Shown here piece after piece: positions 25,411 through 61,500 of a stretch of DNA of 64,000 nucleotides. The position numbers and the translations under genes are program-made. The stretch is from Pyrenula massariospora (lineage: Eukaryota > Ascomycota > Eurotiomycetes > Pyrenulales > Pyrenulaceae). The notes beneath the pieces were generated by a model that saw only the letters and a list, made by a program, of their open reading frames with translations, was not told the origin of the DNA and searched no databases. Location: the NCBI GenBank assembly GCA_021030905.1, contig JAGFMI010000020.1, positions 496,001-560,000 of the forward strand. The letters run 5' to 3'. Every line of letters starts with the position of its first letter. Position 1 is the first letter of the stretch.

Positions 25411-26336
25411 TAATCAAGTGATATGCTTGGAGCAGGTGATGAGTCCCGTGTGGGTCCACCTGATGTCCAAAGAAGGCTTTGATAACCTTTTTATGTTGTT
25501 GAGTTCGTAGGGGCTTCTGTTTGGGGGATTTGTATGTGTGTTAAAGTGCAACCGGCGTCTCCGAAAGCTCGCTCAGGCGGAAATATGGCGGAGCAAAAGC
25601 AATATGATCTTTGGCGTTAGGGCAAAGAAATATCGACAGCATGGAAATTTACAGGGAATTTGCCTTCGCGGCAATGGCATTTAGCTTCAGGATCAGAGCC
25701 AAGAGAGGAATACACTTGTCTCGCATAGTCTGAGGATACGGATGGGATTTGAAAGAAGGAAAAGGGCCAAGGAAGCATTGGGGGACACTTTGCATGCAGT
25801 ATATTCTTATCTAATATGAGATGACGTTTTCTTCGTTGCTTGGCTGAAATCGTAGGATGAAGGCTTTAAACTCGTGCCTCCGCTGAAGCAAGATAGCACA
25901 ATTTTGCTGGTGTATTTAAGCACATTTCTGCAATCGTGTATTTAAATCGTTGCGTAAGTGCTCATAAGGCATTCCCTCGGTTGGGAGGGGGTAGTGCTAT
26001 GTGATTAAAAAGTGGAGGTGCATTGTAATTTCTCATTAGAACTTCCACAACGTCTTGCTTCCAGCAATAGAAAAAATCTCAGTCTACAATTTTTCTTGAC
26101 TGTTATGCATAGCACGTACCCTAGACAAATGCTATTAGATCCACACCTAGTCGCAGTGAGAGTCTAACAAGATCCTTTCAAGATAACTTACCATCAAGAT
26201 CATCCAGCACCTCTCCCCATCTCTCTACATCAACCTCCCTCACCAAAACTGCGTCTACATACATCCCACCTTCCTTCCCCAACCTCCCTTTATCCCTCCT
26301 CCCCTCCACCAAAACCCCAAAACCAACAACACCGCG
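25411..26336. other. Intergenic region between SLN1 and RRP41
   Basis: The 3' flank of the kinase gene is followed by an AT-richer stretch. The last ~130 bp before the RRP41 ATG form a very C-rich leader. No gene is visible. Confidence 0.5.
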
Positions 26337-27572
26337 ATGCCGCTAGACTCCACCCTCTACGCCCTCTCCCACCTGCGCACCGACGGCCGCCGCTGGAACG
26401 AGCTGCGCCGCCTGAGCGCGAGCGTGTCCACGCAGCCGTCGGCCGACGGGTCGAGTTTGCTCAGCATGGGGAACACGACCGTTGTTTGTGGGGTTGTTGG
26501 GCCGAGGGAGGGGTGAGTTTGCTGTTCTCTTTTTTTGGAGGGTGGTTTGGATGTCTTTGTGGAGTTCTGAAAGGGTTCATTGTGGGCGGGTTGGAGGTGG
26601 TATAGAGGGGGGTATTTTTTTGGTTGATTAGGGCTATGTGGTTGAGATATGGGAGGGAGGAGATTTGTTTTTGTCATTCACGCTGCTTCCCGTCCTACAA
26701 GGTTTTATGTCAGAGGGGCATCTGGCTTCTCTGTCTGAACCGAGATGGGCCAGGAGCTTTTGCATACCCTATCGTCGATTTCTTTCCGGGCTACATAGCA
26801 TTGTCATCCAGCACTGGCGACCTACACTCACAGCCTATGTTTCATTTTATTGTTTATTGTCCACGTATCTGCCACTTCCACTAGCCAATCTTCTGCTATC
26901 TATTACTAACACTCTCCTCTCCTTCTAGCCGTGCCCAACCAAACGCCACATCCGCCACCCTCGAAACCACAATCACGATCCACCCCTTCGCCCAATCCGA
27001 CCGCAAACGCCGCGGCCGCAACGATAAACGCATCCAGGTTCTCCACCCCTGTCCCCGACACCCCCTATCCTTCTTCTAACAGTACTGTCTAGGAACTCCA
27101 ACAAACCCTCACCCAGACCCTAACCCCACACCTCCAAACAACCCTCTACCCGCGCTCCCTCATCACCCTAACCCTGCACGTCCTCTCCCTCGACGGCTCC
27201 CTCCTCGCCGCCCTCCTCAACGCCAGCACCCTCGCCCTCGTCGACGCGGGGATCCCCATGCCGAGCCTGCTGTGCGCCTGCTCCGCCGGGCTGATCCTGT
27301 CCGCAACGACGGGAGATGGCGGGGAGCAGCGGGCGGACGCGGTGGTGGATCTGAACGGGGCGGAGGAGGGGGAGGTGGCGGGTGTTACGGTGGCGACGGA
27401 GGGAGGGGAGGGGGGGAAGGTGGGGATGCTGGTTTTGGAGGGGAGGGTGCGGGCGGGGGAGGGGGTGGAGAGGTTGGTGGGTGCGGCGGTTGAGGGGAGT
27501 GGGAGGGTGAGGGGGTTGATGGAGGGGGTTGTTAGGGAGTATGGGGAGAGGGTTGGGAGGGGGAAGGGGTGA
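26337..27572 (+). CDS. rrp41: Exosome core subunit Rrp41/Ski6 (RNase PH family)
   Basis: Exons 26337-26512, 26929-27037 and 27093-27572 give 254 aa. The N-terminus has the family signature LRTDGRRWNELRRL, then STQPSADGSSLLSMGNTTVVCGVVGPREG. The third exon carries SLITLTLHVLSLDGSLLAALLNASTLAL and VDAGIPMPSLLCACSAGL. Rrp41 is one of six RNase PH-fold subunits forming the ring of the nuclear and cytoplasmic RNA exosome; eukaryotic copies are usually catalytically inactive and structural. The first intron (26513-26928, 416 bp) is about eight times the usual length here. The second (27038-27092, 55 bp) is normal. Base composition is extreme: C-rich up to the middle of exon 3, then G-rich to the stop, and another C-to-G switch lies within exon 1. 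A Glu/Gly/Val-rich loop in exon 3 may reflect that composition. Confidence 0.93.
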
Positions 27573-28361
27573 AGGTGTGGATGGGGGCGGGTGGAGCTGG
27601 GGATTGCTGGGGAGCGCTGAGAGACTTCGATGAGGAAGAGTCTCCTTATCAGATATTCGCGCTCGTATTGTATGACAGATATGGGTGCGTAACGACGGAG
27701 CGCAAGAGGTTTATCCTCACTTACTCTCCTAGTGCGCTAATCGTACCGACGCTAGAATCTTTATTTTAATTTGGGGGATACCTGGCTTTCAGAGTAAGCG
27801 CTAGGCGTGCCATCATACGTCTATGGCGGAATTTTCATACGTCTCGATTTCTATAGGGAGTTGTTTAGCTGCTTGTTTAACCGGGTGTAGATTCCGCCTT
27901 CTTCCTTAGCTCCTACTATCCTGAGGAACTGACATGCGTTTAACGACTAGAACCTTAAGCAATGGCCATCAAGGGGCCTGATCCAGACATCCATGGAAAT
28001 GGGCCAGGGAGTACACGGGGAGCAAATACGCAATCTATTATCTGTTGCCAGGGGAATTCTTCTCGCGATAGCAGATATTGAAGAGCGCCATCTTCGGAGT
28101 TCTTGCAGGGTTTTCCGAGTGGCACCTTTATGTGTAGGCTCTGGTGCTGCTGAATGATTTAGGGTATTGGGCTAGAGCTAGACCGTTAGTCCAAGTCTTG
28201 TTGTCTCTCTTAGGCTGCGTCTGGCCTTCTTCTCGATCAATTCAACAGCCAAACTGCGTGCAGTCCCTGAGTTCTACCTTAGATCAAACCGACAGATAAT
28301 TTTGACCTGGGAGAATATCAACGGCGGTGCGGATTTGGTCCGAGAGGCCGGGTTGCGCTGA
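27573..28361. other. Intergenic region between convergent RRP41 and YdeI-family genes
   Basis: This is the shared 3' flank of two convergent genes. Only short frames without family resemblance are present, and no repeat is seen. Confidence 0.5.
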
Positions 28362-29096
28362 CTAGCACGGCGAGGTCATTTTTCGTCTTGATCGAGTGAG
28401 TTGCTTAGGCTCATTTCGAGACTGACTAGTAGCCGAGTCTTCCTTCGCCTTCGTCTTTTTGAGACGTCTTTTCTCCGCGTTAACATCTGCAGATTTCCTC
28501 TTGTGCGGCTTAGCTGCCTCCAACAAGGGCATGCCCTCTGCCAGGGTTTGCACAACTCTTTCAATACATTTCGCCCGATTCGGAGCAGTGACTACGCGCA
28601 TCGCCACTTTATACCGCCTGCTCTTCGACATGTCCTCAAAAGTGCCTAAGGCGTCTGGTTCGGCAAGAACAGCCTTCATCAAATCATCAGGGACTTCCAT
28701 GGTTGCAGGACTTGAGTACGCTCTTTGCCAGCTCCCGCTTTTCTTCCCAGCTTCTACGGCGTCGCGGCCGGATGGGCGCATTCGTCCATTCTTCTCAAGC
28801 TTTTCAATTCTCTCCACATTTATCCAAGACCAGATGCTCTTCGGACGACGAGGCGTGTATCGCACCAGCCATGTCTGATTGTCAAAAGAGTTGCCTCGCC
28901 CGTCGATCCAGCCAAAGCATAACGCAACTTCAACAGCTTCGACGGGGGAGATGGACGGGATACCGGAGGATTTTTTGGCTAGTCTGAGATAGATACCAGA
29001 CGCTCTTTGGTGCTCACGTTCAAGGAAAGCTTCAAAGTCGACGGCGGAAGGGAATGAATGGATGGGTAAATCGGTGGGTGGTGGCTTGGGGGTCAT
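28362..29096 (-). CDS. YdeI/OmpD-associated family protein
   Basis: This is a single exon of 244 aa. The ATG at 29096 begins MTPKPPPTDLPIHSFPSAVD. The core matches the YdeI/OmpD-associated fold: FEAFLEREHQRASGIYLRLAKK, then PVEAVEVALCFGWIDGRGNSF and WLVRYTPRRPKSIWSWINVER, with a later helical part (MEVPDDLMKAVLAEPDALGTF). A highly basic Lys/Arg-rich tail (about residues 200-244) is added after the domain and could be a nuclear-targeting or nucleic-acid-contact region. Family members occur in bacteria and many fungi, and their biochemical role is not established. The gene is convergent with RRP41. The family assignment is strong; function is unknown. Confidence 0.85.
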   Translation of the reverse strand: MTPKPPPTDLPIHSFPSAVDFEAFLEREHQRASGIYLRLAKKSSGIPSISPVEAVEVALCFGWIDGRGNSFDNQTWLVRYTPRRPKSIWSWINVERIEKLEKNGRMRPSGRDAVEAGKKSGSWQRAYSSPATMEVPDDLMKAVLAEPDALGTFEDMSKSRRYKVAMRVVTAPNRAKCIERVVQTLAEGMPLLEAAKPHKRKSADVNAEKRRLKKTKAKEDSATSQSRNEPKQLTRSRRKMTSPC

Positions 29097-29282
29097 GGCA
29101 TCTTTGGTTTAAGGGAATCTCCATGCGTCTGTGGTTCTGTAGTGTTCAAAGTTGATGTTAATCCCATCGGCGATCTATTGACAAGGTTCTAGGCGAGAAT
29201 AAGTCTGAGCAGTAAGGCGTATGGGCGAAAAGGACCTCTACCTCTATGGGATCCGACATGGGTTATGTTTTCCTCGTCTATC

Positions 29283-29441
29283 TATCGATAAAACGAGAGT
29301 TACAGGAGTAAAGGAAGCCAAAAAAAGATCGTTCTGGCGCTATTTTTGGGTGCCTTCTCTCTCGCTCCCCGCGGTATTGGCGCGGAAATGCAATTGCGCG
29401 CCACATCGCAGATTCTGAGGTGCGTGCATCGAAGATGCGTG
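29283..29441 (+). repeat. Diverged direct repeat, copy A
   Basis: Three blocks in this stretch recur in the same order and orientation at 32661-32840. The first is a perfect 16-mer beginning tatcgataaaacgag. The second is a perfect 12-mer ttttgggtgcct, 61 bp downstream here and 56 bp in copy B. The third is a 21-mer matching at 18 positions (tgcgtgcatcgaagatgcgtg here). Collinearity argues against coincidence. The two copies bracket the amino-acid permease gene and may be relics of one mobile or solo-repeat family. Confidence 0.6.
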
Positions 29442-29442
29442 A

Positions 29443-39313: not shown

Positions 39314-42300
39314 ATGGGGGACTGGGACTTCTATTGCGCTTTATGCGCCTCGGACTTCTCCAACATTGAAATGGTTCTGGATCAGATCCGCAATGCTTTG
39401 GGCGCATCGGAAGAGAATGACGCGGCAACAGAATCTGAACGTGCCGAGGCTCAATCTTTTGTCACCGAATACTTTCCCGAATCAACCCTTCGGTGGAACG
39501 AAGTTCTCCATGCCTTGTCCTACAATCCAGAGTCGCTCAACCTGAAGAAGGCATATATTAGCGGGTCTGGCGGGTCTCAAGGCTACGGCAGTATCGAAGT
39601 CAAACGCGGGACTGATCAAAATGCACCGGGATCTCCGCAAAATACTGATGAGAAGCTTGACCTACAAGCGTATCCATTACCAGAAGCGGCCAGTGATGTG
39701 GCTCTCCCAATGCACTATGAATGTCTTTTCAATATCTTGCCCAAAGTCATTGGTGAAATGTCTACAGGATTTTTTGGTGACTGGAGGACGTGGACTATTG
39801 ATAGGATTGACAAGGACGTGCTATGGGAGTCGTTCCAGCCAACATTGGAAGAATATCAATCTTACACAAACCTTGATCACTATGAAAGGAATGACGGCAA
39901 AGGAGAACAGTATTGGTATTTGAAGGCAGCAGATGTGTCCTCCGTCTCAAACCCCTTCGTGATACCTACTTTAGGGACTTATTGCGAAAATCTTCCGAAG
40001 ATCCCTAAAATGGCTAGGGGGGACACCAGTGCTCCAACTCCGAGCTCTTTGGGCGGTGCGACTATAGACAAAGGCCCTTTTGGGAAACTTTCCGCGGATT
40101 TGCTCCTCCATCTGTTCGATTTCCTATCTGCCCAAGATCTCTACTCCATGCGAATCGCTTCACGAGCGGCTGCATCTGTTCCTCTACTACCAGGTTACTG
40201 GAAGCGTCGGCTGTGGACAGACATGCCTTGGGTATGGGAGTTACAGTCTGAAGATGATATCTCTCTAAATGGAGAATCTATCGATTACCAGACCGTATAC
40301 CGTCAACTCTACCTTGACAGCTTCGAACAGCCGCGAAAAGGCAGCAAATTGCCGGGGCAGCCAGGTCTATGGAATCGTCGCCGAATATGGATGACGTGCG
40401 AACAGATCGGAAAGGAATACCTTTCCAGAATCGAAAAGCAGGCTAGACTAGAAAAGTTTCAAGGCCAGGACGCGGACCTCGCTCGCTGCAGCTTTGCTTC
40501 GCAGGTTCCCGAAATCGCATCGTAAGTTTGTTTTCTGCCTATCTATTATCTTAGATTGTGTCATCCTGCCGCCCTTCCCCCACGGCCTAAAGGCCCTAAA
40601 TAGCTACGGTGAGCGGCCCGTAATCATTGCACGGCAGATTTGAAGCTACATGGACGCGATTCCTTCTACACAATTTCCAAGACTTGCCAGCGCCGGTGGA
40701 ATGATCAAATCTGTCCACTAAAAACTGGAAGAGATGGAAGCCGCTCGCCCCAAATGGCAACTTAGTTGCGCCATGACAAGCTCAGCTCTCGTCTCGATCT
40801 CTGTTACCTGAATTGAGCTCTGATATTTTTTGCTTTACCTGTTTCATCTCCATGTGTGCCTCTCTAATGTCTACTACAGGAAAGTTGGGAAGAGCGCCAC
40901 ATCTTTCCAATTCCCTTTGATTCTGAGTTGGAACGAGGATATTCAGGACCAGAGCCTTGTCGCTTATTGGGACGGGAATGGCCTCCTTTCCGGCCTTGAA
41001 ATTATAGATCACAGAGATTCCACGCCACGGACCAAGTGCAAGATTGGTTTTTCATTCGCAGCCAATCAATCTCGGATGGCCTTACAATCTTCGAATTGGC
41101 TGCAGAGCCTGGAATTGTGGACGAGTACTCCTGATTTGAGGAAAATGAGACTGAATGAGGACGACAATGACAAAACCGGGATCATTCGTCTGAGAGCGGT
41201 GCTTCGATCTGGCGAAGTCGTAGATCTTGTTTCTGACCCACCACCAATATGCGAGCGAACCTCGAAACGCCTTTTAATCCCGACTCGAGGCGCTACGATA
41301 GTCGGGTTTCAAGGGGTACTGGAAGATGCCGACAATGGTGTCGTGACCCGGTTTGGTCTTCTGCAGGCCGTCCCAGGCACTTCAAAACCACCCTCAAGTA
41401 TCCAGGTTCCAATACGTGAGAAACTTGCTTGGCTTGATACCATTCCTGACCCTGTCTTTGAGCCCCAGCAATACGAACTGGGCTATTGGAATCCAAGCAT
41501 ATCCCAGGATCTCATACCTCGAGAAACACTGATCTTTGGCGCCACCTCAGCCGAACGAGCGCACGTAACCGGCCTCTCCGTTGATGATTCACTACGCCGT
41601 TTCGAGGTGCATTTTGACAACAAACCCTCCGAATCCATGGGCAACGCGCGCGATGAATTCTACACCTACATGGACAACAAGCGCCAACCGCGGACAAAGT
41701 TCTTCCCCATCGACGGACCTGGCGGCGAACGAATAATCGGCATCCAGCTCCAGGTCAACGCTCTCCCCTTCGAGCTGCGAATCATGACCAACCGCCGCCG
41801 CCAGGCCTTCTTCGGCCAGTACTGGATCTCGCGCAACGGCTCTGACGCAGACAAACCCGCCTACACTGCCTCCTCTGAAAAAGCCGTTGGCGGCCTCTAC
41901 GCCAGCTTCGGCTACGCCTCCGGCAAACAACTCCAACTCGCATCCATCTCAACCCTCCTCGTCCCCGACCCGGACACCTCCAGCCAACAAACACCCCCGC
42001 AAATCGCAATCGCAGACATGCCCCTCGACCCCCACGGCAACCACTGGGACCCCTCCCCACCTCCCCCTTGCTGGGTCTCACACGGCCCCATCTACGGCTC
42101 CCAAGACCCCGCCAGCCACACGGTCACCTGGCTCGATCTCTCTCGCCCAATCTCCCGCATCGACGCCCTACAGTACAATCGCATCCACAACGAACCCCTG
42201 CCGCACGCGGACGCGAACCCGAACCTCCTCCCCTACCAGAAGGTGCGCGTATCCCGCGCGCGGCCGGTAGTCGAGTATTTAAAGGGGCTAAGGGTTGTGT

Positions 42301-42758
42301 ACGCGGATGACGGGGAGGTAAGGACAGTGGCCGGCCCGCCGGCGGACGAGCCGGAGGACCTAGGGCGGCTGGAGGGCGGGCATCCGGGGTATGAGGATGC
42401 GTCGAGGGTGGGCGGGTGGTTGAGTAGCCGGTGGGACGTGCCTGGGGGCGGCAGGGTGAGGAGGGTGAGAGTGTGGAGCGACGGGTACGAGGGGGTGGGG
42501 GAGGTGTCGGTTTTTTTGAAACGGGGGCGTTCGTTTGGGGTGAGGTTTGAGATTGATGGTGAGGATGGTGGGGGGTGGGGACCGGAGTTTGGGGATTGCT
42601 TTGGGGAGCCGGTTGGGGAGTTTGGTGTTGGGGGGAGGGGGAGGAAGGGGGAGGTGGTCGGGTTGAAGGTTATTGTGGGGATGGGGGGGAATTGTGAGCA
42701 TTCGAGTTCGGAGGATGTTGTGAATTGCGTTGGTGTGCAGGCGCTGGTTTGGAGGTAG
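39314..42758 (+). CDS. Large F-box domain protein
   Basis: Exons 39314-40521 and 40880-42758 give 1028 aa from MGDWDFYCALCASDFSNIEM. The N-terminus has a CxxC (CALCASDF) often seen in fungal F-box proteins of this kind. The F-box is near residues 255-300: FGKLSADLLLHLFDFLSAQDLYSMRIASRAAASVP, followed by YWKRRLWTDMPWVWEL. The rest is a long conserved region with FYTYMDNKRQPRTKFFPIDGPGGERIIGIQLQV, containing beta-rich blocks and a Gly-rich end. F-box proteins couple targets to SCF ubiquitin ligases by binding Skp1; the substrate is unknown. The intron (40522-40879) is 358 bp, long for this genome, with good signals (GTAAGT, CTACTACAG) and in-phase joining (EIAS-KVGKS). The last 1 kb switches abruptly from C-rich to G-rich near 42250, and the encoded C-terminus becomes Gly/Val/Arg-rich. 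Confidence 0.85.
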
Positions 42759-43489
42759 GTAGGTAGGTGGGCAGAGAGGGAGAGGTTCTGGCTCACGCTG
42801 GTCACGTGAATCGTGTAAATTTATATCTACAGTTCACGTGATATTGTAGAGATTCTGGTTGGACTGGTCGGCTCGGGTTTGCATACTAGACTACGAGGCT
42901 TACCCACGCACGCCACGCTACTCTCTCCTCTGTAGAGCATGCGCTCCTGGAAATGGACAATGTGACCATGGAAATGGAGAGCTGCATTCCTATCCAGCCC
43001 GCCTTCATTGCTTACATCGATCTGAAGAAGCATTTCACAACATACGATTTACGTCGAGGTAGCATGACTCTTTGCACTCGCTCGAAGCGGTTCCCACAGA
43101 TAGCATCACGTTACAGGTTGGAGAGGCGGATGATAGATTGTCTTATTCTACCAAAGTTGGTACATAGCGCAGCTACGCGTATTCGAAGGCGTGTGAAATT
43201 CAGGAAGCCCAGAACAGTTTAGAAGGAGAAGGCTCGAAAAGATTGAAAAAGAAACCTCTTGTTATCTATTTCGTAGAATGACTCCGCTGGTAGACTAGAA
43301 CGCGTGTCTACGTCGCAACGCTAAGCCGTTGTAATGAGAGTGTTGCAGATAGCTTGGACGAGGCAGGACAGGCAGAGCAAGTTTTGCCATCCAGAGATCG
43401 GACATAAAAGCTGATATCTTAGAAATTGGCCACGGCCACCCGGTCACTCGATTGTTACGCATTGCCGGGTTATTGTGCCAGTCTGCTCA
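42759..43489. other. Intergenic region between convergent genes
   Basis: This is the shared 3' flank of the F-box gene (+) and the membrane-protein gene (-). A plus-strand frame of about 89 codons at 42953-43222 has no family resemblance and is not called. Confidence 0.5.
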
Positions 43490-45817
43490 CTATGCCTTCT
43501 GTTCCGGAGTAAGCTGTACTTCGACAATTGTGTCTGATGGAGATTGCACGTCCGTGTTAGAGTCGGTCGAAGTGTCTTTTGATATCACTTGAGTTACTGC
43601 AAGGCTCTTTTCGTTTTCTGGATCGCTGTCTCTTCCTTCACCAAGTGGGGGTTGGGACGGGCGCATAATTGTCGGATTCTTGTCGTCTGACGTGTCGACC
43701 ACACCAAGCCTCTCGCCCCGCTCAGTGACTGGAACGCCAGCAGTACCTCCGCTCCAGGTTCCTAAGCCGAGCTCCTGATGGGCCATACGCTGTAGCTGCA
43801 ACGTTTCGTTCGTAATCCACTCGAGTCGGCGGTAGTTGCCCAATGCATGTTTGCGCCGCCCCTGTAGATACATGTAGATAGGTTCGATCACGAGTGATAC
43901 GATGATTAATAAACCGCCAAGGATGAGTGTGATGGCCAGACCTAGTACGCTGAAGGAAGTATATGCCGTACTCCGGACCTTCTGGCTGAGGCACGACTGG
44001 CTGCCGCTAACGTCAGGCATTGTCTTGTTCACGTATTTCTTCAAAGCTTCATCAGAAGGGCCCGTAGCCATGTCAACTGTAAGTCTTTGTATGTTTGCCA
44101 TAGAGACACCCTGCCAGTGCAAGACTTCCTCCTGCCATTGATTTGGGGGGATAGGCCCCTGATTGCCATCAGAAAAGCTGTTTCGGGCCTGCAATGCGCT
44201 GTTTCGCAATATTCTTACAACCTCTGTCAAGGCGGTCCTTCCGTTGTCGAAGGCAAAGTACCAATAATTAAACATCTGCTCTTGTTCCTTTGAGCTCCAT
44301 GTAATAGTCGGTGTTGGCTCAAGGCCAAGTGGAGAGCAGCGATTGGTGTGTGGATCGCAAAATTGATCTCTTGAGATGCAGCCAAGCACGTTGGTTTTAT
44401 TATCAAATTCGTAGATCGGAAATTTATCGTTTGGATTGTCGATGACATATCGTGTGCCAGCTGGGGTACGCGCGGAATACCAGTCGTCTTCGACGGGCGC
44501 GAAAAATTTCACCCCGTCAGCAGATAAGAAGTAAAGAGATATCAGCGAATTGTTATGCCCTAACTCAGAAATCGGCATAAAGCTTGACTCATCATCGTAT
44601 CCAGCCTCCCAATATTCAATACTACACAACACCAACGTCAGCAGGCAGGGGAGGCTATCTGAAAGGGAACACACTCAAGCTTGTAATCGGCATTGTTTAC
44701 CTCTACCCCAACATCCACGTCGAAATGTAACGGGCGTCGGTAAGTCGCGTAATCATAGCCTCCATTTCGGCTACCATACAGGAACTCCAAAGATGCATTA
44801 TCTGCGGTATAAGGCTTGGAGCTATTGATTTTTACATAGCCGTCGGTGACTAATGGCGCACATTCATCAACACGACGATATGCGAATCTTTTTTCTGGTG
44901 GTGTGTTTATGCCTAAATGGTCGTGAGAGTTGAGTAGACCAGTATCTAAGCGTAGATTTGCCGAATTATGAAGACAGATATTCTTCCCCGGGAAAGGACA
45001 GGAAGCATTTTTGTCCACTTGGAACGGAAGATTTTTCGTGACATACGTGGAACACACCTGGCCCGACAACTTGCCGTCGTAACATTGCTGGGCATACGCT
45101 TGAGCTGAGATGTAGCGCCGATTCATGTAGGAATAATAGTCTTGAAAGTAAGAAAGTATTGAATCTGGAGTGAGAATGACTCCACAGTTCTTATTAGCAA
45201 CAAGGACTTCGGTTCCAGTTGCCGTGGAGATCTACTCGACGAAAAAGCCCCCAGTCAGCAATGTCATAGGTAATATTGGTATTCGAAGGTCGCAACAACC
45301 GCTTCTACAACATAAGAAAAACCACTCGGGATGTATGAACTCGGAAGATTCGAAGACAGAAAGGCTTTATGCACTCTTCGTGGAGATATGACCGTACCTG
45401 AGATGAAAATATACTGGCAACGTTGAATGCAATAGTCATTAGAGCGGCGACAGTGATCAAAGGAAGGAGCCGTTGCCAGTCATTAGGTGCTCTTTTGCGC
45501 CACCTCCATGCCATCGGAATAAGTGTCCGCAGCGCAAAGGTACCTGTAGCTGCGTTGCGTAGGACAGCTTGCCTCTGGTGATAAAGGCCATCTTGAGAAG
45601 TCCCCTTTGATAATCGCGAATGCGTAATGAAGCAAAATAGTCGCCAGAAGCATCTGCCCACAAACGCGACAAATAATGCCAGAAATACGGTCAGAAGACC
45701 GCCAGCGCGGTGATCAAGCGTGATCGTAGCTCCCTTGATCGGGCCGTAGGACCAGTCGATCCAGGCTCCAGTGTATATCGAATTTTCAGAAATCGCGTTT
45801 GTGATAGAATCGCCCAT
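43490..45817 (-). CDS. Uncharacterised fungal multi-pass membrane protein with large extracytosolic domain
   Basis: Exons 45817-45398, 45231-44675 and 44621-43490 give 702 aa from MGDSITNAISENSIYTGAW. Two membrane segments lie early (about GLLTVFLALFVAFVGRCFW and LLPLITVAALMTIAFNVASIF). A roughly 400-residue region with many Cys and Asn-X-Ser/Thr sites then looks extracytosolic. One more membrane segment follows near the end (LGLAITLILGGLLIIVSLVIEP) before a cytosolic Ser/Asp/Glu tail. The layout resembles a widely seen but unnamed class of ascomycete surface proteins; no enzymatic motif is visible. Splicing is in phase at both junctions (IFSSQ-ISTATG and ADYKLD-IEYWEAG). The first intron (45232-45397) is 166 bp. 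A receptor or sensor role is possible, but that is speculation. Confidence 0.75.
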
Positions 45818-49624: not shown

Positions 49625-50424
49625 AGCTGGAACGGGAAACGAGTCGTTGAACGGAGTCTCAAGAGAACAGGTAGAGATGAAAAAGTCTATTTCTCATCTC
49701 AGCGAAGGCATCGAAAATTTCATGACTGCAGCGCTACAGAGCTAGAGGAGAGCGATCTCATTTGTAACAGCAGACTTTTTTGTCATCTATTACATGTTGA
49801 TTAATATTTCTCGGTAAGATAATTTCATACTTGCAGCCCGATACGTTTCCATGATTCGAAGGGAAGGGCTTGCTTGGAGCCTATATGGATATGAGGGCAA
49901 AGCTTGGTTAGGAATCATACCGGAATTGTGTGAGCGCATCTTTGTGCTGGCTTGAGTTCGAAAGAGAACAGCTCGGAGTCAACACGTGGTTGCAGATGTG
50001 ATTTTCTCTATCTTTTCTGCTAAATTGGAATTCGTTCAATCGCAGCTATTTCAGATGCCCTGTTCCTTACACGCATTGTCAACAAAGTTTTCTGCCACCA
50101 TCGATTTCAAATTCTCATTTCGTCGCGGGACTGGTGAGTGGTTAAAAAGTAACCTGGCGGACCCCGCCCTTTGACATCCGTCCCGCCCTTGTCAACAACA
50201 CAGTGCGGGGAGTCATCGTCAATGACGCAAAAAAGTTAAAAAGGCCAAGCATCCCCAATCGAGGAATAAGAAAGAGAAACCACATTGACTCATTTCTTAA
50301 GTTTGCGTGTCAGTCATTCTGTGATCAATATCAACACTAGTCAAAGTCTCAAGAGCGGAATCTTTGGACTCACTCAATATCGACCCCTGGTCTCAATCCT
50401 TGCAACGTGACCCTCGCACTTACT
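49625..50424. other. Intergenic region with the promoter of the PLP enzyme gene
   Basis: About 0.8 kb. Near the downstream gene it contains a TGACTCA heptamer listed separately. No gene is seen. Confidence 0.5.
50286..50292. promoter_or_regulatory. TGACTCA, Gcn4/CpcA (bZIP) consensus site
   Basis: A perfect TGACTCA lies 133 bp upstream of the ATG of the trans-sulfuration enzyme gene. This is the consensus for Gcn4/CPC1, which induces amino-acid biosynthesis genes on starvation, and also for AP-1-type factors. Position and target function fit cross-pathway control. A single heptamer can occur by chance. Confidence 0.4.
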
Positions 50425-51789
50425 ATGGCCTCTTCAGACGCTATTCAGGCAAGCAATGGTACTCTTGAGACAAACAAGACACAAGATCTCTCGACAGCAT
50501 CTCCAGAAAACACTAGCACCATCGACGCCGGTAAAGCCGAAGAGATCATCACAAATGCCCCTACCATCGACCCTCCAGCCCACCTTTCAACCCTTGCTCT
50601 CCACGCCGATGACCCAGTCAACGTAGTCTCGGACGTCGCTCCCCCCCTCCACGTCTCAACCACCTTCCGCTACCCATCAGACCCCTCAGCTCTAGTCCCA
50701 CCCCATGAACACAGCGAACCCCACGACCCCGCCTCCCACGTCTACTCCCGCCACACCGCCCCCAACACCACCCGCCTCGAAGCCCTCCTCAGCAGCATCC
50801 TCAACGCCCCCTGCCTAACCTACTCCTCCGGCCTCTCCGCCTTCCACGCCCTCCTCACCTGCCTCGTCCCCCGCACCGTCTCCCTCGGCTCCGTCTACCA
50901 CGGCTGCTACGGCGTGCTCAACATCTACTCCCGCCTGACCAAATGCCGCCGGGTCGGGCTCGACTGCGCCGCCGAGGACCTCTCGCGGGGCGACCTGGTC
51001 TGCCTGGAGACGCCGGTGAACCCGACGAGCGAGGCGTTCAGCATCGCCAAGTACGCGGAGAAGGCGCACAGCAGGGGTGCGTATCTGTTCGTCGACTCGA
51101 CGTTTGCGCCGCCGCCGCTGCAGGATCCGTTTGCGTGGGGCGCGGATGTGGTTATGCACTCGGCGACCAAGTATATCGGTGGGCATTCTGACATGCTGGG
51201 TGGGGTGCTGGCTGTGAGGAATAAGGAGTGGCTGGGGAGGCTGTTGGAGGATCGGGTTTATCTTGGGAGCGTTATGGGGTCGATGGAGGGGTTTCTGGGC
51301 GTGCGGAGCGTTAGGACGTTGGAGATTAGGGTGGAGAGGCAGAGTCGGAATGCGACGGAGCTGGTACGGTTCTTGGATGCGGTGCTGAGAGGGAATTCTG
51401 GAGATAGTGAAGTTGAGCAAACGAAGGCGGAGAAGGTAAGGAAGGTATTAGACAAGGTTTTGCATACAAGCCTGCAGAAAGATGAGACAGGATGGCTGAA
51501 GAAGCAGATGCCGAATGGCTTTGGACCGGTGTTCTCAATCGTCATGAAAGAGGAGAGTCAAGCGAAGAGACTGCCAAGCAAGCTCAAGTTCTTCCACCAC
51601 GCCACCAGTCTGGGAGGGGTTGAGTCGTTGATCGAGTGGCGGACCATGAGCGACGCAACGGTGGACAGGAGGCTATTGAGGTTAAGCATTGGAATTGAAG
51701 ATGTGACGGATTTAAAACACGATCTTGTGGACGGCATGGTTGCTATTTGCGAGAAGGGAGACCAGAATGGAGTTCACGGGACCAAATGA
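50425..51789 (+). CDS. PLP-dependent Cys/Met metabolism enzyme (cystathionine gamma-synthase/lyase family)
   Basis: This is a single exon of 454 aa; the first ATG is 50425 (MASSDAIQASNG). The fold-type I PLP core shows VAPPLHVSTTFRYP, YSRHTAPNTTRLEALLSSIL, TYSSGLSAFHALL, and the PLP-lysine block HSATKYIGGHSDMLGG with Lys near residue 249. The family makes or cleaves cystathionine and related thioethers in methionine/cysteine exchange. The divergent N-terminus and lysine block place it with the fungal Yml082w/Str-like group rather than with canonical cystathionine gamma-synthase, so the exact reaction is open. A Gcn4-type site lies upstream. The 5' half is strongly C-rich and the 3' half G-rich, with the switch near 50960. 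Confidence 0.88.
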   Translation: MASSDAIQASNGTLETNKTQDLSTASPENTSTIDAGKAEEIITNAPTIDPPAHLSTLALHADDPVNVVSDVAPPLHVSTTFRYPSDPSALVPPHEHSEPHDPASHVYSRHTAPNTTRLEALLSSILNAPCLTYSSGLSAFHALLTCLVPRTVSLGSVYHGCYGVLNIYSRLTKCRRVGLDCAAEDLSRGDLVCLETPVNPTSEAFSIAKYAEKAHSRGAYLFVDSTFAPPPLQDPFAWGADVVMHSATKYIGGHSDMLGGVLAVRNKEWLGRLLEDRVYLGSVMGSMEGFLGVRSVRTLEIRVERQSRNATELVRFLDAVLRGNSGDSEVEQTKAEKVRKVLDKVLHTSLQKDETGWLKKQMPNGFGPVFSIVMKEESQAKRLPSKLKFFHHATSLGGVESLIEWRTMSDATVDRRLLRLSIGIEDVTDLKHDLVDGMVAICEKGDQNGVHGTK

Positions 51790-52016: not shown

Positions 52017-52772
52017 CTACTTCGTCTCTCCTGCACGCCTAAGAATAGCCCAAACGTCCAGCGCATCGAACGCCTGCCTCATCGTCCTACCCTCATAGAG
52101 CTGGTCGACAACCCCTCCCAAGACATCATCGTTCTGAATGGAAAATCATTTCATTAGTACTCACAAAAGAATAGAAGATGAGAAACTCACCATCCCAGAA
52201 ACCAAGAGCATCTCGTTCAGTATACTCGTCGCCGTGATCCACTCCCCCTCTTCCCTCTCATCCTCTGCCCTTTCCCTCTCCAGTACATTCTTGACTCGTT
52301 GCACTTTAGCTTCCGCCTCTTTCTTCGTGTCTTCCAACTCCCGGCGTAGTCTCGCCACTTCATCTTTAAGGCTCTTATTCTCTTTCTTTGCGGCAGCAAG
52401 GGCGTCTTTGGATTTGTCGGGGGGCATCGCAGAACGGCTGATCAAGCGCAGTGCTGATCTGATCTGATTGCCAAGATCATCGGCCTGGATGTCTTCTCTT
52501 TGCTGTTTGGTGCGAGGAGAGTTGAATGCTTTCGGCGTGGAAGTAGAAGACGCCGGTTTTGATTTGAAGGAAGGGACGTCCTTCTTCGTTTTGAGGATCG
52601 CGGCGTCACTTTGAGGAGAGATTTTCCGCTTCGAGCCGTTGGCAGCCTTGAAAAGACGGACGGTTGAGTGATCGTGAGCGCTTTTCTCGGTAACTATGTT
52701 GGGCTGATTGGTTTCACCTTGAAAAATTCTTTGTGAGCGGCGACGAAGCATCATTTGTGAGTCTGCTGCCAT
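52017..52772 (-). CDS. Small coiled-coil protein of unknown function
   Basis: Exons 52772-52191 and 52133-52017 give 232 aa from MAADSQMMLRRRSQRIFQGE. The N-terminal half is basic and disordered (KRKISPQSDAAILKTKKDV). A coiled coil follows (about residues 120-170: ALAAAKKENKSLKDEVARLR, then ELEDTKKEAEAKVQRV), and a compact C-terminal segment spans the splice site (TSILNEMLLVSGM-NDDVLGG, then YEGRTMRQAFDALDVWAILR). The intron 52134-52190 (57 bp) has GTGAGT, a TACTAATG branch site and TTCAG signals. The layout is like small kinetochore or spindle-pole components, but I cannot name a family. The splice-restored conserved-looking end makes a real gene likely. Confidence 0.65.
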
Positions 52773-55411: not shown

Positions 55412-56261
55412 TCCTATTGATCTCTATCTCGGTCTATCTACCACTTGCTCATGAGGCTTACGTCGTTCTTATGTCGTCTCGCTTCCATTGTTTGAAGCGC
55501 ACAGATGAGCACCTATGTCTGCTGTTGGAGTACTTTCCGGACATCCGTGGTGCGGTAAGGCAAGGTTGGGAATCATTGAGTGGAGACATATGAAAGTTGA
55601 TTGCTAAAGCCTCAAAGAAAGGTTAAAAGGTGTATGCGATGTCTTTATTGGTAGTAAGAGAAATTTCCAGCAAGTCCCAAAGAGGAGCACGGCGGAGAAT
55701 TGTTCTATGTAAGTTCCAAAGATAGACTGTGGACACCTACTTATTCCAAAGACTGTTCAAACGTGATGACAGGAAAGTTGCAGGGTTAAAGTTGTGCTAC
55801 CAGGCATCTTGAGATTCTAGATCTAGTCGACGTATGATGGAGAAGAATCGTCCCAAGGCATTCAAGTGCAACTGCCTTTGGTCCGATATCACAAGTCGCA
55901 CGTCAGTCGTTAGCCTAGACCGCACCCACCATTCGAGGAATACGCCAGGAATGAGATGCCGTGAAATGTAAGAATGATAGCTTGCCTTAAAGTCGGTCGT
56001 CTTTTTAGTAAGTTAGATTGAGGTTTCACAAATTAAAAATAACGAGGCGGAGCGGAAGACCAGCGTTCTTTCTACGGAGGGCGATACGCGACCGTTGCGC
56101 CGCGATCCACATGTTGGCCCAGACCCTGGGGTCCAGTCACCTGCAACATCCACACCTGGCATGAAGTGTGACTTTCTCAAAAGCAATGATAGCCTGACTG
56201 GTATTCGTATATCTAAATACTAGTCGTCCGCTGAGGATTTTGATTGCCATATCTCAGCGCC
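55412..56261. other. Intergenic region upstream of the alkaline phosphatase gene
   Basis: About 0.85 kb with no recognisable frame or repeat; it contains the phosphatase promoter. I see no clear Pho4-type CACGTG within it. Confidence 0.45.
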
Positions 56262-58129
56262 ATGGCTGGCGAAGAGCCACTTCTTCGCTCGTCCTCGCCT
56301 CAATCCGCCCGCTCTCAAGAACGTCAAGAAGAAGAGGATGCTTTGCTGACTGGCCGGCCTGTGTCTCGCTCCTCTAGATCACCCTCTTTCTGGCGACAAG
56401 CAGGTCTCTTCACATGGGCTCTACTAGCCACTATCGCCGTCATTATACTCGCCGTCGTATATCAACATGAACATACCGTTGCACACTCGAGAGTACGAAC
56501 AGGAGGATGGGGACCAGACGGGAAACCTAGCGGAAAGAGGAACATGATATTCATGGTCTCGGACGGGATGGGTCCGACCAGTCTCGGTCTGACAAGATCT
56601 TTTAAACAAATTACGGAGGGTTTACCGTGGGACCAAACTCTCGTCCTGGACAAACATCTCATCGGCCAATCGCGTACCCGCTCGACAAGTAGCCTCATAA
56701 CTGATTCCGCCGCGGGCGCAACAGCCTTCTCCTGCGCAAAGAAGAGCTATAATGGCGCCATCTCCGTCCTCCCTGATCATACTGCCTGCGGCACCGTCCT
56801 AGAAGCCGCAAAGAAGGCAGGCTACATGACCGGTCTCGTTGTCACAACTCGCGTTACAGACGCAACGCCCGCCTGCTTTGCCTCGCACGTCAATCACCGT
56901 GAATATGAAGACCTCATCGCTGAACAAATGATCGGTCAATACCCCCTAGGTCAAACTGTTGATCTAATCATGGGTGGCGGCCGATGCCACTTCCTCCCAA
57001 ACTCTACCTCTGGCAGCTGTCGCAAGGACACCAAAGACGTTGTCCAAATCGCCAAGGACAGCGGCTTTAACTACATCGATAATCGATCGGATTTCGACCA
57101 TCTTGCCTCCACTTCCGGAGTTAAGCTACCCCTTCTCGCCCTCCTTGCTGAACGCGATATTCCCTACGAGATCGACCGTGTCCATGCCTCTGACATATAC
57201 CCCTCCGAAGCCGAGATGGCGAGCATGGCTCTCAATGCGCTTGCGGCAGCCACCCAATCTTCAGATAAGGGTTTCTTCATCATGATTGAGGGGTCGCGTA
57301 TTGACCACGCTGGGCATGCGAACGATCCAGGTGCGCAAGTGCACGAGGTTCTCGCTCATGATGCAGCCTTTGCCGCCGTACTTGACTTCCTCGACAAAGA
57401 GCAGACGGAAGGTGTTCTGGTCAGCACCTCAGATCATGAGACTGGAGGTTTGTCGACAGCCAAGCAGCTACACAAAGAGTACCCGCACTACAGATGGTTC
57501 CCGGAGGTTCTGGGCAATGCGACGCAATCCACGGAGTTCTTGGGGGGCAAATTCTCGGAATACAAGAACGGAGATGGGAGTAGCAAGAACAGGCTGGAGC
57601 AGCGGAAGTTTGTCAGGGACGAGCTCCTCTCTCCGGGTCTAGGAATCCACGACGCTTCAGACGACGAGGTGGACAGTATACTAGACGCGGAAGCCATCTG
57701 GCCGCCCATGTACATCTTCTCAGATATGATCAGCCGAAGAGCGCAGGTGGGCTGGAGTACACATGGGCACTCTGGTAAGTATATATCCGATACCTCTTCG
57801 GAATTTACATCCCACTAACTACACACCCAGCCGTCGACGTCAACATCTACGCCTCCGACCCCTCCCACGCACCCCCCTTGGTCGGAAACCACGAGAACAC
57901 CGACGTCGGCGCCTTCATCGCCGAGTACCTCGACCTCGACCTCGACCCCGTGACCCAGGAACTGCACGAGAAGGGCGTGAAGACCAGCCAAGACGGCAGC
58001 AGCGAGTGGATGGGCCCCGCGAATCTGCCCAGCCAGGAGGGGGATGGGTGGATGAGTCTGGATACGTACCATGGGGACTTTAAGGTGAGGAAGAGGGAGA
58101 GGAGGGATTGCGGGTGTGGACTGCATTAG
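56262..58129 (+). CDS. pho8: Vacuolar alkaline phosphatase (Pho8 type)
   Basis: Exons 56262-57774 and 57831-58129 give 603 aa; the first ATG is 56262 (MAGEEPLLRSSSPQSARSQE). A cytosolic N-terminus is followed by one membrane anchor (about residues 47-68: GLFTWALLATIAVIILAVVY), the type II topology of yeast Pho8. Metal and active-site motifs are present: MVSDGMGP (Asp about 101), the catalytic Ser about 149 in SLITDSAAGATAFSCAKKSY, IEGSRIDHAGHAND, and STSDHETGG. The enzyme hydrolyses phosphomonoesters in the vacuole. The final exon adds HSAVDVNIYASDPS and the family-type C-terminus; its first part is C-rich and its last part G-rich. The gene is tail to tail with rtc1, 388 bp away. Confidence 0.95.
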
Positions 58130-58517
58130 ATTTACACGTAGAGTTATCAATGGACGGTGGTAGGGGATTAATTCGCTTGCGGTGCATTGGGACGGCGCGT
58201 GTCGGGAAGGACAGATACAGATTTGCATGTCTTTTGGTCGGGAAAGCTTTGGGGCGCTGTATCAGATCATTATGTATTTCATGTCGTGGGCTTTAGCGCG
58301 AAGACTGAGAGATACCAGAATGTGTAAGACAGTCGATTTCAAAGAACCCTTTGCGGCTAATTAATTTGCAAGAGTCTTATAAGCGCCTGGCCTTCCCATG
58401 AATGTGCACCATCCAGTTATTAGACGTGTAATCGTTAGCAATCCCCATAATATAGCAAACCGCTCACAACTAGCCACGCCAGTGCTGCGTACCTATCCTG
58501 CTAACCCCCCCTCCAAA
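58130..58517. other. Shared 3' flank of convergent pho8 and rtc1
   Basis: These 388 bp separate the two stop codons and must carry both 3' untranslated regions. No gene is seen. Confidence 0.6.
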
Positions 58518-61500
58518 TCAGCCGCCCTCCTCCTCCCCCGGCGTCACAAGCCTAACCTGCTTCCTCCCCCCTCCACCCCCACCCCCACCCGCACCCGCCC
58601 CAGCGCTCAAAACCCTCCTCGTCCTCTCCACCGCCCCACTCCTCTTCGCAACCACCCCATCCGTCTTCGCGCCCATCGCCGCACCCCCCCTCAACAACCT
58701 CGCCTCTGCCTCCCCCTTCCTCTGCTCCTCCAAGCGCGCCTCCCTCGCCGCGCCCGGCGCACAGTCGTGTCCGCACCCGGGCGTCGGACAACAGCCGGGG
58801 CTGTCGGGCGCGTCGAGCCAGGCGAGGATGCAGGACCCGTGGCCGCCGTGGCCGCAGGCCTGGCAGGTCGTCCAGAGCGCGGTGGCGCCGCGGTGGTGCG
58901 TGGTGTCGGCGGGCGATGGTGAGGTGTTGTAGGGCGAGGGCGAGGAGGAGGAGAGCTCGAGGATGTCGTCAGGCGGCGGCGGGTGGATGGAGAGGCAGAT
59001 GGGGCAGGGGTCGCGCGGCTGGTGGCATTGGGTGCAGATCGAGGGGTTGGCGTTGGTGCCGCCGAGGGGGGCGGCGCAGTGCGGACACGTGGCGAAGACG
59101 AAGCGGCTAGTAGCCGCACTGGAGTTTTGGCTGGATGAGGATTCTTGGAAGATGTGGGTGAGGCCGTGATCTTGGCAGAAGTTCCGGACTTCGGCTGCGG
59201 CGACGGGGAGGTTTTGGGCTTGGAGAGAATCGTAGTAGGTAAAGAAGATAGTACTGATTACACGTGCAAAAGTAGTGGGTTCGAACAGTCGTTTGGTGAA
59301 TGATGAGTCTTCGCAGGTCTTTATACTGTCGCCATCATGTAGAGGTGTCCAGAAGTAGAAGGGGAGAAGGTGGAAAAGAAGTTGGGCGGCAAATTGGCAA
59401 TGACTGGTGCCGTTATGACCTTGTAAGTCTGTCTCGAGACATGAGACGAGTAACGGAAGAACAGGCCATGGTGAGCGTGCTTTGATGGGCGTCGCCGCAA
59501 TTGCTGCGGATTGAGGTCGTTGAAAATCTTGGTAGATTATATTGGGTGACGACAAATCTTCGTCGACTTGGAACGACGGCCCTGTGCTGTCTACACTAGG
59601 TCTCTGGACTCTTGAAGGGACGGTTCGCCAGCGCTCCTGGTCTTGTGGTCTCGAAGACAATTGAGGAGACATGCGAAATTGTTCCACGGAAGATCCAGCA
59701 GGCGAGGCTGCGAGACTATTCTCCTTCGTCCCGAATGAAGAAGTCATATGGCTGAATTTACTCACATCTTCGGAGTCTGTGATAGATTCCATCGTTGGCG
59801 GTAGCTCATCGGCCGCATCGAAACCAAACGTGATGTCTCTTTCATCGAACGAACGATCAGCCGATTGACTCTCTGCGTCATGCTCGTTCCTCCTCCTAAA
59901 AATCTGGTCAAGATGACCAACATCGCCGCTCTCGTTTGAAGGCGGGGATGACGGTTCGAAATCCGCATGCTTATGATTTGGAGCAACTTGCGGCCAACGG
60001 TCTGGACTAATGGCGTGATCTCTCGATAGTTTAGGGGATTCAAATGATCCCTGGACGGACCTAATTTTGTGGGAACTATCAGTGGAGGTTGAGAACATGG
60101 GGAAGCTTTCGGCAGAGTCATAGCGATATATTGCAGCGGTGGTGTCAGGTTCGGCATCGTTTGGCTGATCATAATTGAGAATCGGCCTGCCTTGTGCACG
60201 GTAATCACGTAGCGCTTCTCTTCGATCGTCTTCATCGAGGTCCTCCTGCGAAGTAATATGTTTTTCCTCCGCGCCAATTCTGGCATTTTCTACACCTGGA
60301 ACAAGCGGCTCTACATTTATTCGTGGTCGGTGGTATTGGCCTAGAGCCGTTGCTCGGGTGGACAAGGGAGACGAAGAAGGAGAAGAACGGGGCGAGCTCG
60401 GCGGCGATGAAGAACTGCGGTAATTATCTCCCTTCAAAGCATTTGATGCTGCAGCCGCAGCTGAATGTGCATTCAATAAAGACGGGGGTAGTGGGTCAAG
60501 TTGTTCTGCATCATGTCCTGTGGCTTGATCTTGGAGTATTGAGCCAGGTCGTTCAGGAAGAGGCGAACCTTGCGCTGCTTTAGCGAGTGGCGTGGTCATA
60601 TTAGACGTACTATCAAGGTCGTTTAGTCCTTTTTGAACGGCTGGCTCGAGAAAGCCCTTGACTACAATATCTTTCGTCTTGGACTGATGGGGTGGCCGCT
60701 GGTCCTGTTCCTGACCAGGCACTATCTTTGATCTGATAATGGTCGCTCCGGTTTTTCTGGCACTTTCCCTTGCTAGCATTCCATTTCTCTCTCGGCTCTT
60801 CTCTAGTCTGTTCTGACGATTTTGTTCGGCCCATAACTCCAAGTCAGCAACAACTATTGCTCCGAGTATTCTCCAGGATTGAGCCAGGCGATGCAGCGAT
60901 AATTCATCGCAGACTATGCTGTTTCCTTTGAAAGCCTGATTCAATTGCGATAAGACTTCGTTTGGTCGTTTCATGGCCTTATCTCGGGTCAATGGTTTAG
61001 AGTAGTTGTCCGCCAGGAATCGAAAGGCTATTTCACCTTCTACAGCGATATCCAGGTCTACCCTGATACCTACCTGGTCCTCGTTCGATTGTCTGTCTTT
61101 TGGCAAGCTCCGATCAAAATCCATAATTGTAGGTGTTTCGTCCCTTGAAGGAGGGGTATTCTCTTGCGAAAGGAGGTATCGTGGGCCAGATCCCCTGTTA
61201 TGTCTCCGTGCCCAAACGTTCGTGGACATATCAGATTGGACTTCATCGTCTACATTAGCGTGGCCTGCTGCAGGTTTTCCCTCGTTACTTCCAGAGCCCG
61301 GAACAGCGCCCAGGCGCGGAGCAGACGATAATCTACGTGCATGGAAATCTTCAGAATATGTAAAGAGCTCATCATCACGTAGCCAGACCTTTGGGCAGAT
61401 ACTAGTCGCACCCAAGACCTGCGAGGTATATTCGACATCGTTCTGGGTAAACATTCCCTCATTTCCGACGGTCCAGAGCAAATCACGCGAATGCCAAAGC

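What the first reader, a model, noticed from the sequence alone, without database searches (positions are those of the whole stretch)
26210..59120. Recurrent intragenic C-rich to G-rich strand switches
At about 26390, 27260, 42250, 50960, 57970 and 58770 the plus strand changes from strongly C-rich to strongly G-rich over a few dozen bases, each time inside a gene, with a CpG-rich core such as cgcgcgcggccgg. The change is carried mostly by third codon positions. The order is always C then G on the plus strand, in genes of either orientation; because the pattern is its own reverse complement, it marks a centre and not a transcription direction. Such a turn is what a bidirectional replication origin or a local recombination/gene-conversion centre would leave. 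Other genes here lack it.
Basis: partly seen in the sequence, partly recalled or inferred. Interest (0 to 1): 0.72.

Follow-up and report, generated by a model that had tools for sequence, protein, structure and literature searches.

The report
C-to-G skew turns at convergent gene ends
In this fungal genome, short stretches near the ends of genes that face each other swap from C-rich to G-rich around a GC-rich centre, a pattern that may be the fossil footprint of where meiotic recombination begins and of which DNA strand was corrected.

Summary
All six turns are real and belong to a genome-wide pattern in a 37.8 Mb genome, a filamentous ascomycete by gene content. In 314 kb sampled, GC peaks chosen blind to skew (200 bp, GC at least 0.68) rise left to right in 22 of 23 cases, and in 18 of 18 outside the window. 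Synonymous shuffling removes the turns (12 genes against a mean of 0.05).

[quoted passage not shown] 0 of 3000 random placements reach it). And the rule is not plain GC bias: on the C side of turns, C gains on every base while G loses even to A at A/G two-fold sites; the G side mirrors this. Arms reach about 400 bp, usually cross stop codons, and vanish beyond 500 bp, which speaks against replication skew and codon selection.

Best reading (0.45): imprint of recombination centres at meiotic-axis-like sites, with heteroduplex mismatches containing G corrected toward the donor more often than those containing C. Transcription-linked mutation at convergent ends is the main rival. A weak averaged form was published in 2011 (PMC3315797).

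The parts
26190..26690 (.). Turn 1, centre 26423 (250-bp arms -0.59 / +0.57, GC 0.67)
   Evidence: plus-strand response-regulator exon 24814-25410 to the left, minus-strand ORF 28362-29096 (OmdA) to the right
26860..27660 (.). Turn 2, centre 27268 (-0.57 / +0.61, GC 0.72); G-to-C valley at 26756 separates it from turn 1
41850..42850 (.). Turn 3, centre 42237 (-0.49 / +0.45, GC 0.64)
   Evidence: inside ORF 40830-42758 (+), no Pfam match
50560..51460 (.). Turn 4, centre 51030 (-0.32 / +0.33, GC 0.69)
   Evidence: inside the Cys/Met PLP-dependent enzyme gene
57770..58270 (.). Turn 5, centre 57967 (150-bp arms -0.40 / +0.43)
   Evidence: at the 3' end of the alkaline phosphatase gene
58470..59270 (.). 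Turn 6, centre 58820 (-0.48 / +0.44, GC 0.77)
   Evidence: 300 bp from the 3' end of the minus-strand WD40-repeat gene
2061..2561 (.).
   Evidence: 180 bp from the end of a minus-strand gene chain
40830..42758 (+). ORF of 642 aa carrying turn 3; the next long ORF, 43490-44674, is on the minus strand (convergent)
43490..44674 (-). Convergent partner of the turn 3 gene, no Pfam match
50407..51789 (+). Cys/Met metabolism PLP-dependent enzyme carrying turn 4; ORF 52161-52772 (no Pfam match) follows on the minus strand
56244..57818 (+). Alkaline phosphatase gene, with a further plus-strand exon scored to about 58102
58518..62222 (-). WD40-repeat gene carrying turn 6, convergent with alkaline phosphatase

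Best explanation
Each turn is the long-term imprint of a recombination initiation centre lying near the 3' end of a gene, mostly in convergent pairs, where axis proteins collect in yeast meiosis. SHOWN here: GC peaks with arms of about 400 bp; at turns, C gained and G lost on the strand whose 3' end faces the centre (plus strand on the left, minus strand on the right), with A and T nearly neutral; all codon positions affected and both gene orientations alike; enrichment at convergent 3' ends. INFERRED: a break at the centre is resected so that the 3'-ending strand invades the homologue; heteroduplex mismatches are corrected toward the donor, and mismatches holding a G (G:T, G:G) are corrected more often than those holding a C (A:C, C:C). 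That alone favours C and disfavours G on the invading strand, mirrored on the other side. An ordinary GC bias adds the GC peak. If the fungus is haploid, as most filamentous ascomycetes are (recalled), mismatches between alleles arise only around meiosis, so the centres would be meiotic and fixed in place long enough to remodel codons and some amino acids.
For: Blind GC peaks have one polarity (18 of 18 outside the window at GC at least 0.68). C gains and G loses at four-fold and both two-fold classes at turns, and one potential per base taken from four-fold sites predicts the two-fold sites (C at C/T 0.84 predicted, 0.81 observed; G at A/G 0.43 and 0.39). The shift has the same sign for all eight neighbour contexts, so no motif is needed. 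Arms of about 400 bp match conversion tracts of 539 and 432 bp in another filamentous ascomycete (PMC10294615, passages). Place matches yeast Red1: 3' ends, more at convergent than tandem pairs, two peaks per pair (PMC4530585, passages; here). A donor-directed model fits four-fold frequencies (KL 0.0008; GC bias alone 0.198). Candida albicans centromeres, where Rad51/Rad52 are enriched (PMC3998917, passages), show the same confined negative-to-positive turn with raised GC (PMC2924309, passages). The genome has matches for Spo11-type, HORMA, MutS, Rad21/Rec8 and Rad51 families and MAT alpha.
Against: No recombination or break data for this fungus. In yeast, breaks are mainly at promoters, not at axis sites (PMC4530585). 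Tetrads of Zymoseptoria tritici show only a weak GC bias in conversion (P = 0.0215), and its maps show weak or absent GC-biased conversion (PMC5844332, passages); a strand-resolved test was not seen in the passages read. The mismatch ranking is recalled, and 346 of 2000 random rankings give the same base order. At blind GC peaks the GC component (0.91) exceeds the strand-odd one (0.45), and G at A/G sites is at background (0.54) within 250 bp and low (0.42) only at 250-400 bp, where the fit is poorer (predicted 0.55). Bases outside any open frame of 60 codons show little skew at 250-450 bp (-0.05, +0.12), though past-stop DNA does. The doublet excess is modest (6 intervals against 2.2, simulated maximum 7). 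23 of 33 convergent 3' ends lack a turn of 0.3 or more.
Confidence: 0.45

Rival explanations
1. Transcription-linked mutation or repair at 3' ends. RNA polymerase in its termination phase, or antisense read-through from the convergent partner, leaves C on the strand it reads as coding; where the partner's read-through dominates the 3' end of a gene the sign flips to G. This extends the gene-end skew of McLean and Tirosh.
For: Averaged C-at-5', G-at-3' coding-strand skew is reported across most fungi studied, with A and T little changed (PMC3315797, parts 1-3 of 4 read). Here tandem genes show a weaker form too: -0.205 at the start, +0.151 before the end. Turns depend on gene orientation.
Against: The arms are symmetric, confined to about 400 bp and centred on a GC peak inside the gene, which this does not predict without added assumptions; the paper reports GC skew negatively correlated with GC content.
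Confidence: 0.28
2. Replication: turns are origins (G-rich leading strand) or termination/stall sites at convergent genes (C-rich leading strand, as in yeasts).
For: Sign fits either, depending on which strand is C-rich; upward skew jumps are reported at some yeast termination sites (PMC3459929, passages). Convergent genes are plausible fork meeting or stall sites (recalled).
Against: Skew is gone beyond 500 bp and within 0.07 of zero to 8 kb; the same argument was used against a replicative origin of the Candida centromere turn (PMC3459929 section 16). A replication skew does not predict the GC peak.
Confidence: 0.12
3. Selected function in RNA or DNA at 3' ends: G-rich R-loops, quadruplexes or pause sites for termination between convergent genes.
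For: Each of two convergent transcripts would run from C-rich into G-rich DNA; 3' location.
Against: G and C runs in the arms are below order-zero expectation (1167 against 1434; the whole sample shows a like deficit, 8593 against 10009). The change is spread over codon positions and all neighbour contexts rather than clustered in motifs.
Confidence: 0.09
4. Codon or translation selection.
For: Four-fold sites show the largest shift.
Against: Positions 1 and 2 shift the same way; arms continue past the stop codon in 7 of 9 turns tested; plus and minus ORFs are alike (18 and 19 at 0.3).
Confidence: 0.03

Closest known systems
Opposite GC skews at the 5' and 3' ends of fungal genes (McLean and Tirosh 2011, PMC3315797)
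   Same: C on the coding strand early, G late; A and T little changed; codon positions 1 and 2 affected; runs into the 3' UTR; its data list includes filamentous ascomycetes.
   Different: There an average gradient along genes; here discrete turns of a few hundred bases, on GC peaks, in a minority of genes, tied to convergent neighbours. That paper reports GC skew negatively correlated with GC content.
Centromeric and telomeric skew turns of Candida albicans (Koren et al. 2010, PMC2924309)
   Same: Confined negative-to-positive GC skew turn with raised GC content; argued by Marsolier-Kergoat not to be replicative (PMC3459929 section 16).
   Different: About 3 kb arms at eight centromeres and some telomeres; here about 0.4 kb arms, about one per 10 kb of sample (31 in 314 kb), mostly in genes. 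The Candida AT skew runs opposite to the GC skew; here that is weak or absent.
GC-biased gene conversion hotspots
   Same: Local GC peak.
   Different: GC bias favours G and C alike on both strands; here G loses to A on one side of turns and C loses to T on the other.
Meiotic axis (Red1/cohesin) sites of budding yeast (PMC4530585)
   Same: 3' ends of convergent genes, weaker at tandem ends, two peaks per convergent pair.
   Different: Those are protein-binding sites where DNA sequence is at best a minor determinant; yeast breaks are mainly at promoters. No binding data exist here.

Membership tests
McLean-Tirosh gene-end skew | Coding strand C-biased at 5' end and G-biased at 3' end on average | tested here: met
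   5' ends -0.105 (divergent, n 34) and -0.205 (tandem, n 37); 3' ends +0.285 (convergent, n 33) and +0.151 (tandem, n 36)
McLean-Tirosh gene-end skew | Graded, gene-wide pattern without GC peak | tested here: not met
   turns are confined to about 400 bp arms, on GC peaks, in 10 of 33 convergent and 3 of 36 tandem 3' ends
Replication-origin or termination skew | Skew persists over kilobases to the fork meeting point or origin | tested here: not met
   within 0.07 of zero from 0.5 to 8 kb either side
GC-biased gene conversion hotspot | Local GC peak | tested here: met
   GC 0.62 at the centre against about 0.51 beyond 500 bp
GC-biased gene conversion hotspot | G and C both gain over A and T on each strand | tested here: not met
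   G at A/G sites falls to 0.30-0.34 from 0.53 on the C side of turns; at blind GC peaks it is 0.54 near and 0.42 farther out
GC-biased gene conversion hotspot | Coincidence with mapped recombination | not testable with these tools
   no recombination map or relatives held for this genome
Candida-type centromeric skew turn | Confined negative-to-positive turn with raised GC | tested here: met
Candida-type centromeric skew turn | AT skew opposite to GC skew | tested here: inconclusive
   log A/T on the C side +0.41 [0.16, 0.64] at blind peaks, +0.16 [-0.17, 0.49] at turns
Candida-type centromeric skew turn | Centromere or telomere location, about one per chromosome | tested here: not met
   31 turns in 314 kb, on many contigs
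Meiotic axis site | Enrichment at 3' ends of convergent genes | tested here: met
Meiotic axis site | Binding of Red1/Hop1/Rec8 in meiosis | not testable with these tools
   no ChIP data

The most novel reading that the evidence does not exclude
[quoted passage not shown] This gives a 'strand-skewed biased gene conversion' that makes C rise on the invading strand. A single reference genome would then give a fine-scale recombination initiation map.
Probability: 0.35. Interest if true: 0.88.

Novelty: new variant of a known kind. Interest (0 to 1): 0.63.

Why it matters
Where recombination starts in most filamentous fungi is little known, and GC-biased conversion is judged weak or absent in Zymoseptoria from pooled GC measures (PMC5844332, PMC10294615, passages). 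If the turns mark break sites, such genomes could be mapped from one sequence, and existing tetrad data could be re-read by strand: a pooled GC test cancels the strand-odd component seen here (0.89 at turns, 0.45 at blind peaks). If they are transcriptional instead, they expose an orientation-dependent mutation bias strong enough to shift codon positions 1 and 2.

Tried and rejected
Chance or synonymous-codon noise: rejected. Pure GC-biased conversion: cannot give skew (KL 0.198) and fails at A/G sites of turns. Ordinary replication skew: disfavoured on range. Pure deamination on one strand: predicts only transitions, but C+T rises to 0.74 from 0.51 at four-fold sites on the C side (inference). 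Damage to the single-stranded 3' overhang (C to T) gives the opposite sign (reasoning only). G-run or quadruplex selection: runs are below expectation. Codon selection: arms cross stop codons.

Led nowhere: Rfam (0 matches at gathering score). Paper searches returned no paper; two returned one and two unrelated papers; one returned two, not followed up; I followed up two gerbil papers (passages), which use 'GC skew' for GC content. The statement that discrete, convergent-linked turns were not found in print rests only on the ten answered searches, whose long lists I saw in part. A species guess led only to a taxonomy look-up and was not tested.

Limits: gene models are crude (hexamer-scored open frames, introns not modelled); 17 of 31 turns fall in a gene chain. 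The sample is 314 kb of 37.83 Mb (0.8%): the window plus 25 stretches of 10 kb, of which 20 lie at one fixed coordinate of contigs C1-C20, 2 flank the window, 2 are on C11 and 1 is a contig end. A run of 100 non-ACGT letters lies in the C11 stretch, close to one turn; leaving that turn out, the past-stop skew is 0.34 against 0.25 inside. One search's past-stop test used 9 of 31 turns (those in a gene chain that ends within 330 bp).
Full report
OBSERVATION. In 100-bp steps the skew around 27260, for example, goes -0.75, -0.51, +0.21, +0.78, +0.94. With 250-bp arms and a threshold of 0.3 the window and its two 10-kb flanks hold eight C-to-G turns, in window coordinates -2901, 2311, 26423, 27268, 42237, 51030, 58820 and 68063; 57967 is found with 150-bp arms. 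The window lies in a 37.83 Mb genome of 33 contigs. Its genes (Spa2-homology domain, HMG-CoA reductase, a HAMP-repeat hybrid histidine kinase) point to a filamentous ascomycete; that is my inference, and the species was not determined.

NOT CHANCE. I sampled 314 kb: the window plus 25 stretches of 10 kb. Choosing GC peaks without looking at skew, then measuring skew 25-350 bp either side, gave right greater than left in 63 of 91 peaks (GC at least 0.60), 33 of 39 (0.64) and 22 of 23 (0.68). Jumps over 0.6 numbered 21 v 0, 19 v 0 and 15 v 0; random positions give 2.8% and 1.4%. Leaving out the window, which was picked for this feature, the figures are 47 of 67, 24 of 27 and 18 of 18. G-to-C turns do exist (18 v 31 at 250 bp and 0.3) and sit on average in AT-richer DNA. 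Some lie between two C-to-G turns; others, such as window 5551 and 63215, do not.

WHAT CHANGES. On the C side of turns (100-300 bp out) four-fold sites are C 0.59-0.60 and G 0.09-0.10 (whole sample 0.27 and 0.26). C/T two-fold sites go up to C 0.78-0.82 (0.53) and A/G two-fold sites go down to G 0.30-0.34 (0.53); the G side is the mirror image, and codon positions 1 and 2 shift too. So G loses even to A: this is not ordinary GC bias. Writing the effect as one potential per base, the four-fold sites predict the two-fold sites at turns, 50-250 bp: C at C/T 0.84 predicted and 0.81 observed; G at A/G 0.43 and 0.39. The strand-odd component there is 0.89 [0.78, 1.03] and the GC component 0.54 [0.30, 0.91]. 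At the 32 blind peaks (GC at least 0.66) they are 0.45 [0.32, 0.58] and 0.91 [0.63, 1.17], with G at A/G sites 0.54 within 250 bp (no loss) and 0.42 at 250-400 bp (predicted 0.55). Turns are chosen on skew and blind peaks on GC, so each set inflates one component. The C/G shift is positive for every 5' and 3' neighbour base (1.27 to 3.39). G and C runs are not enriched in the arms.

EXTENT. C and G return to baseline about 400-500 bp from the centre. Mean skew is within 0.07 of zero from 0.5 to 8 kb on either side. In the 9 turns whose gene chain ends within 330 bp, skew past the gene end is 0.35 against 0.27 at mirror distances inside; 7 of the 9 show it and 2 do not (0.00, 0.05). Without the one case beside a run of 100 undetermined bases it is 0.34 against 0.25. 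A cruder test, bases outside any open frame of 60 codons, found little skew at 250-450 bp (-0.05, +0.12); that mask removes nearly all bases near the centre.

PLACE. Coding sequence 1.0-2.5 kb left of the 31 turns is 51-54% plus and 4-9% minus; at the same distance right it is 42-53% minus and 7-14% plus. A convergence index is 0.71 against 0.01 (sd 0.15) at random, reached by 0 of 3000. It is 0.72 after thinning to 26 turns (0 of 3000); 0.28, 0.60 and 0.73 for blind peaks at 0.60, 0.64 and 0.68 (reached by 5, 0 and 0 of 3000); and 0.47 for G-to-C turns, reached by 32. For the 25 turns outside the window it is 0.64 (no permutation run). By gene ends, turns of 0.3 or more occur at 10 of 33 convergent, 3 of 36 tandem and 0 of 2 isolated 3' ends, and at 2 of 34 divergent, 6 of 37 tandem and 1 of 4 isolated 5' ends; the convergent ones lie a median of 316 bp before the gene end. 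Of 31 turns, 17 fall in a crude gene chain, and one of these (L003, 1760) lies near a 5' end. Convergent pairs can carry two turns, one in each gene; 6 neighbour intervals are 726-1177 bp against 2.2 expected, maximum 7 in 2000 simulations, so the doublet signal is modest. In the window, turns 5 and 6 are such a pair, across alkaline phosphatase (+) and a WD40-repeat gene (-).

MECHANISM. Symmetry, GC peak, tract-like size and an additive, selection-like base bias suggest biased conversion around a fixed break site. In a resected break the strand with its 3' end at the break (plus strand on the left, minus on the right) invades the homologue. If mismatches are corrected toward the donor, and those containing G are recognised better than those containing C, then on that strand T goes to C, G to A and G to C more than the reverse: the observed rule, with the observed sign. 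A two-parameter model of this kind reproduces the four-fold frequencies at turns (KL 0.0008) and blind peaks (0.0048), while correction toward the recipient or GC bias alone gives 0.198 and 0.071. The mismatch ranking is recalled, and 346 of 2000 random rankings give the same base order, so this is a consistency check, not proof. Damage to the exposed strand would give the opposite sign (reasoning only). Conversion tracts in Zymoseptoria tritici are 539 and 432 bp (PMC10294615, passages). In yeast the axis protein Red1 sits at 3' ends, more at convergent pairs, in two peaks per pair, while breaks are mainly at promoters (PMC4530585, passages); break sites at axis-like places here are therefore an inference that departs from yeast. 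The genome holds matches for TP6A_N (1), HORMA (4 matches at 3 places), MutS_V (6), Rad21_Rec8_N (2, one read across stops), Rad51 (3, one across a stop) and MAT alpha (1); six-frame family matches do not show that meiosis occurs.

RIVALS. Replication: an origin would need a G-rich leading strand; the yeast-type A- and C-rich leading strand would make an upward jump a termination site (PMC3459929, passages); either way the range is wrong. Transcription: McLean and Tirosh (PMC3315797, parts 1-3 of 4 read) found C bias at 5' and G bias at 3' ends of genes in most fungi studied, with A and T little changed, and proposed phase-specific mutation or C avoidance. The average gene here shows the same, so a transcriptional origin, exaggerated by convergent read-through, remains the main rival. 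Candida albicans centromeres show a confined negative-to-positive turn with raised GC (PMC2924309, passages), argued not to be replicative (PMC3459929 section 16), at sites with fork stalling and enriched Rad51/Rad52 (PMC3998917, passages). That parallel favours recombination but is not proof. Against it, Zymoseptoria maps and tetrads show weak or absent GC-biased conversion (PMC5844332 and PMC10294615, passages).

NOVELTY. The averaged gene-end skew is known. The discrete, GC-peaked, convergent-linked turn and its base rule were not found in the ten answered paper searches, of which asked about skew together with recombination. I rate it a new variant of a known kind.

Noticed in passing
window 17262-25410 (+): A HAMP-repeat hybrid histidine kinase ORF (HAMP repeats, HisKA, HATPase, response regulator) is followed on the same strand by a second HisKA/HATPase ORF and a response-regulator exon: two sensor kinase genes in tandem.
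   Followed up: no
window 52051-52128 (-): ARAGORN calls a tRNA-His with anticodon ATG, unusual for His; Rfam found no tRNA at its gathering score, so it is probably a false call.
   Followed up: partly
L003 around 1760: A strong C-to-G turn (-0.61 / +0.36) about 200 bp from the 5' end of its ORF, an exception to the 3' rule.
   Followed up: no
window 63215 and 5551: G-to-C turns that are not valleys between two C-to-G turns; the one at 63215 sits on a GC-rich spot (GC 0.66).
   Followed up: no
sampled 3' gene ends, convergent and tandem: Coding-strand A over T excess of +0.13 to +0.16 in the last 100-200 bp before the gene end, alike in convergent and tandem genes and so seemingly independent of the turns.
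   Followed up: no
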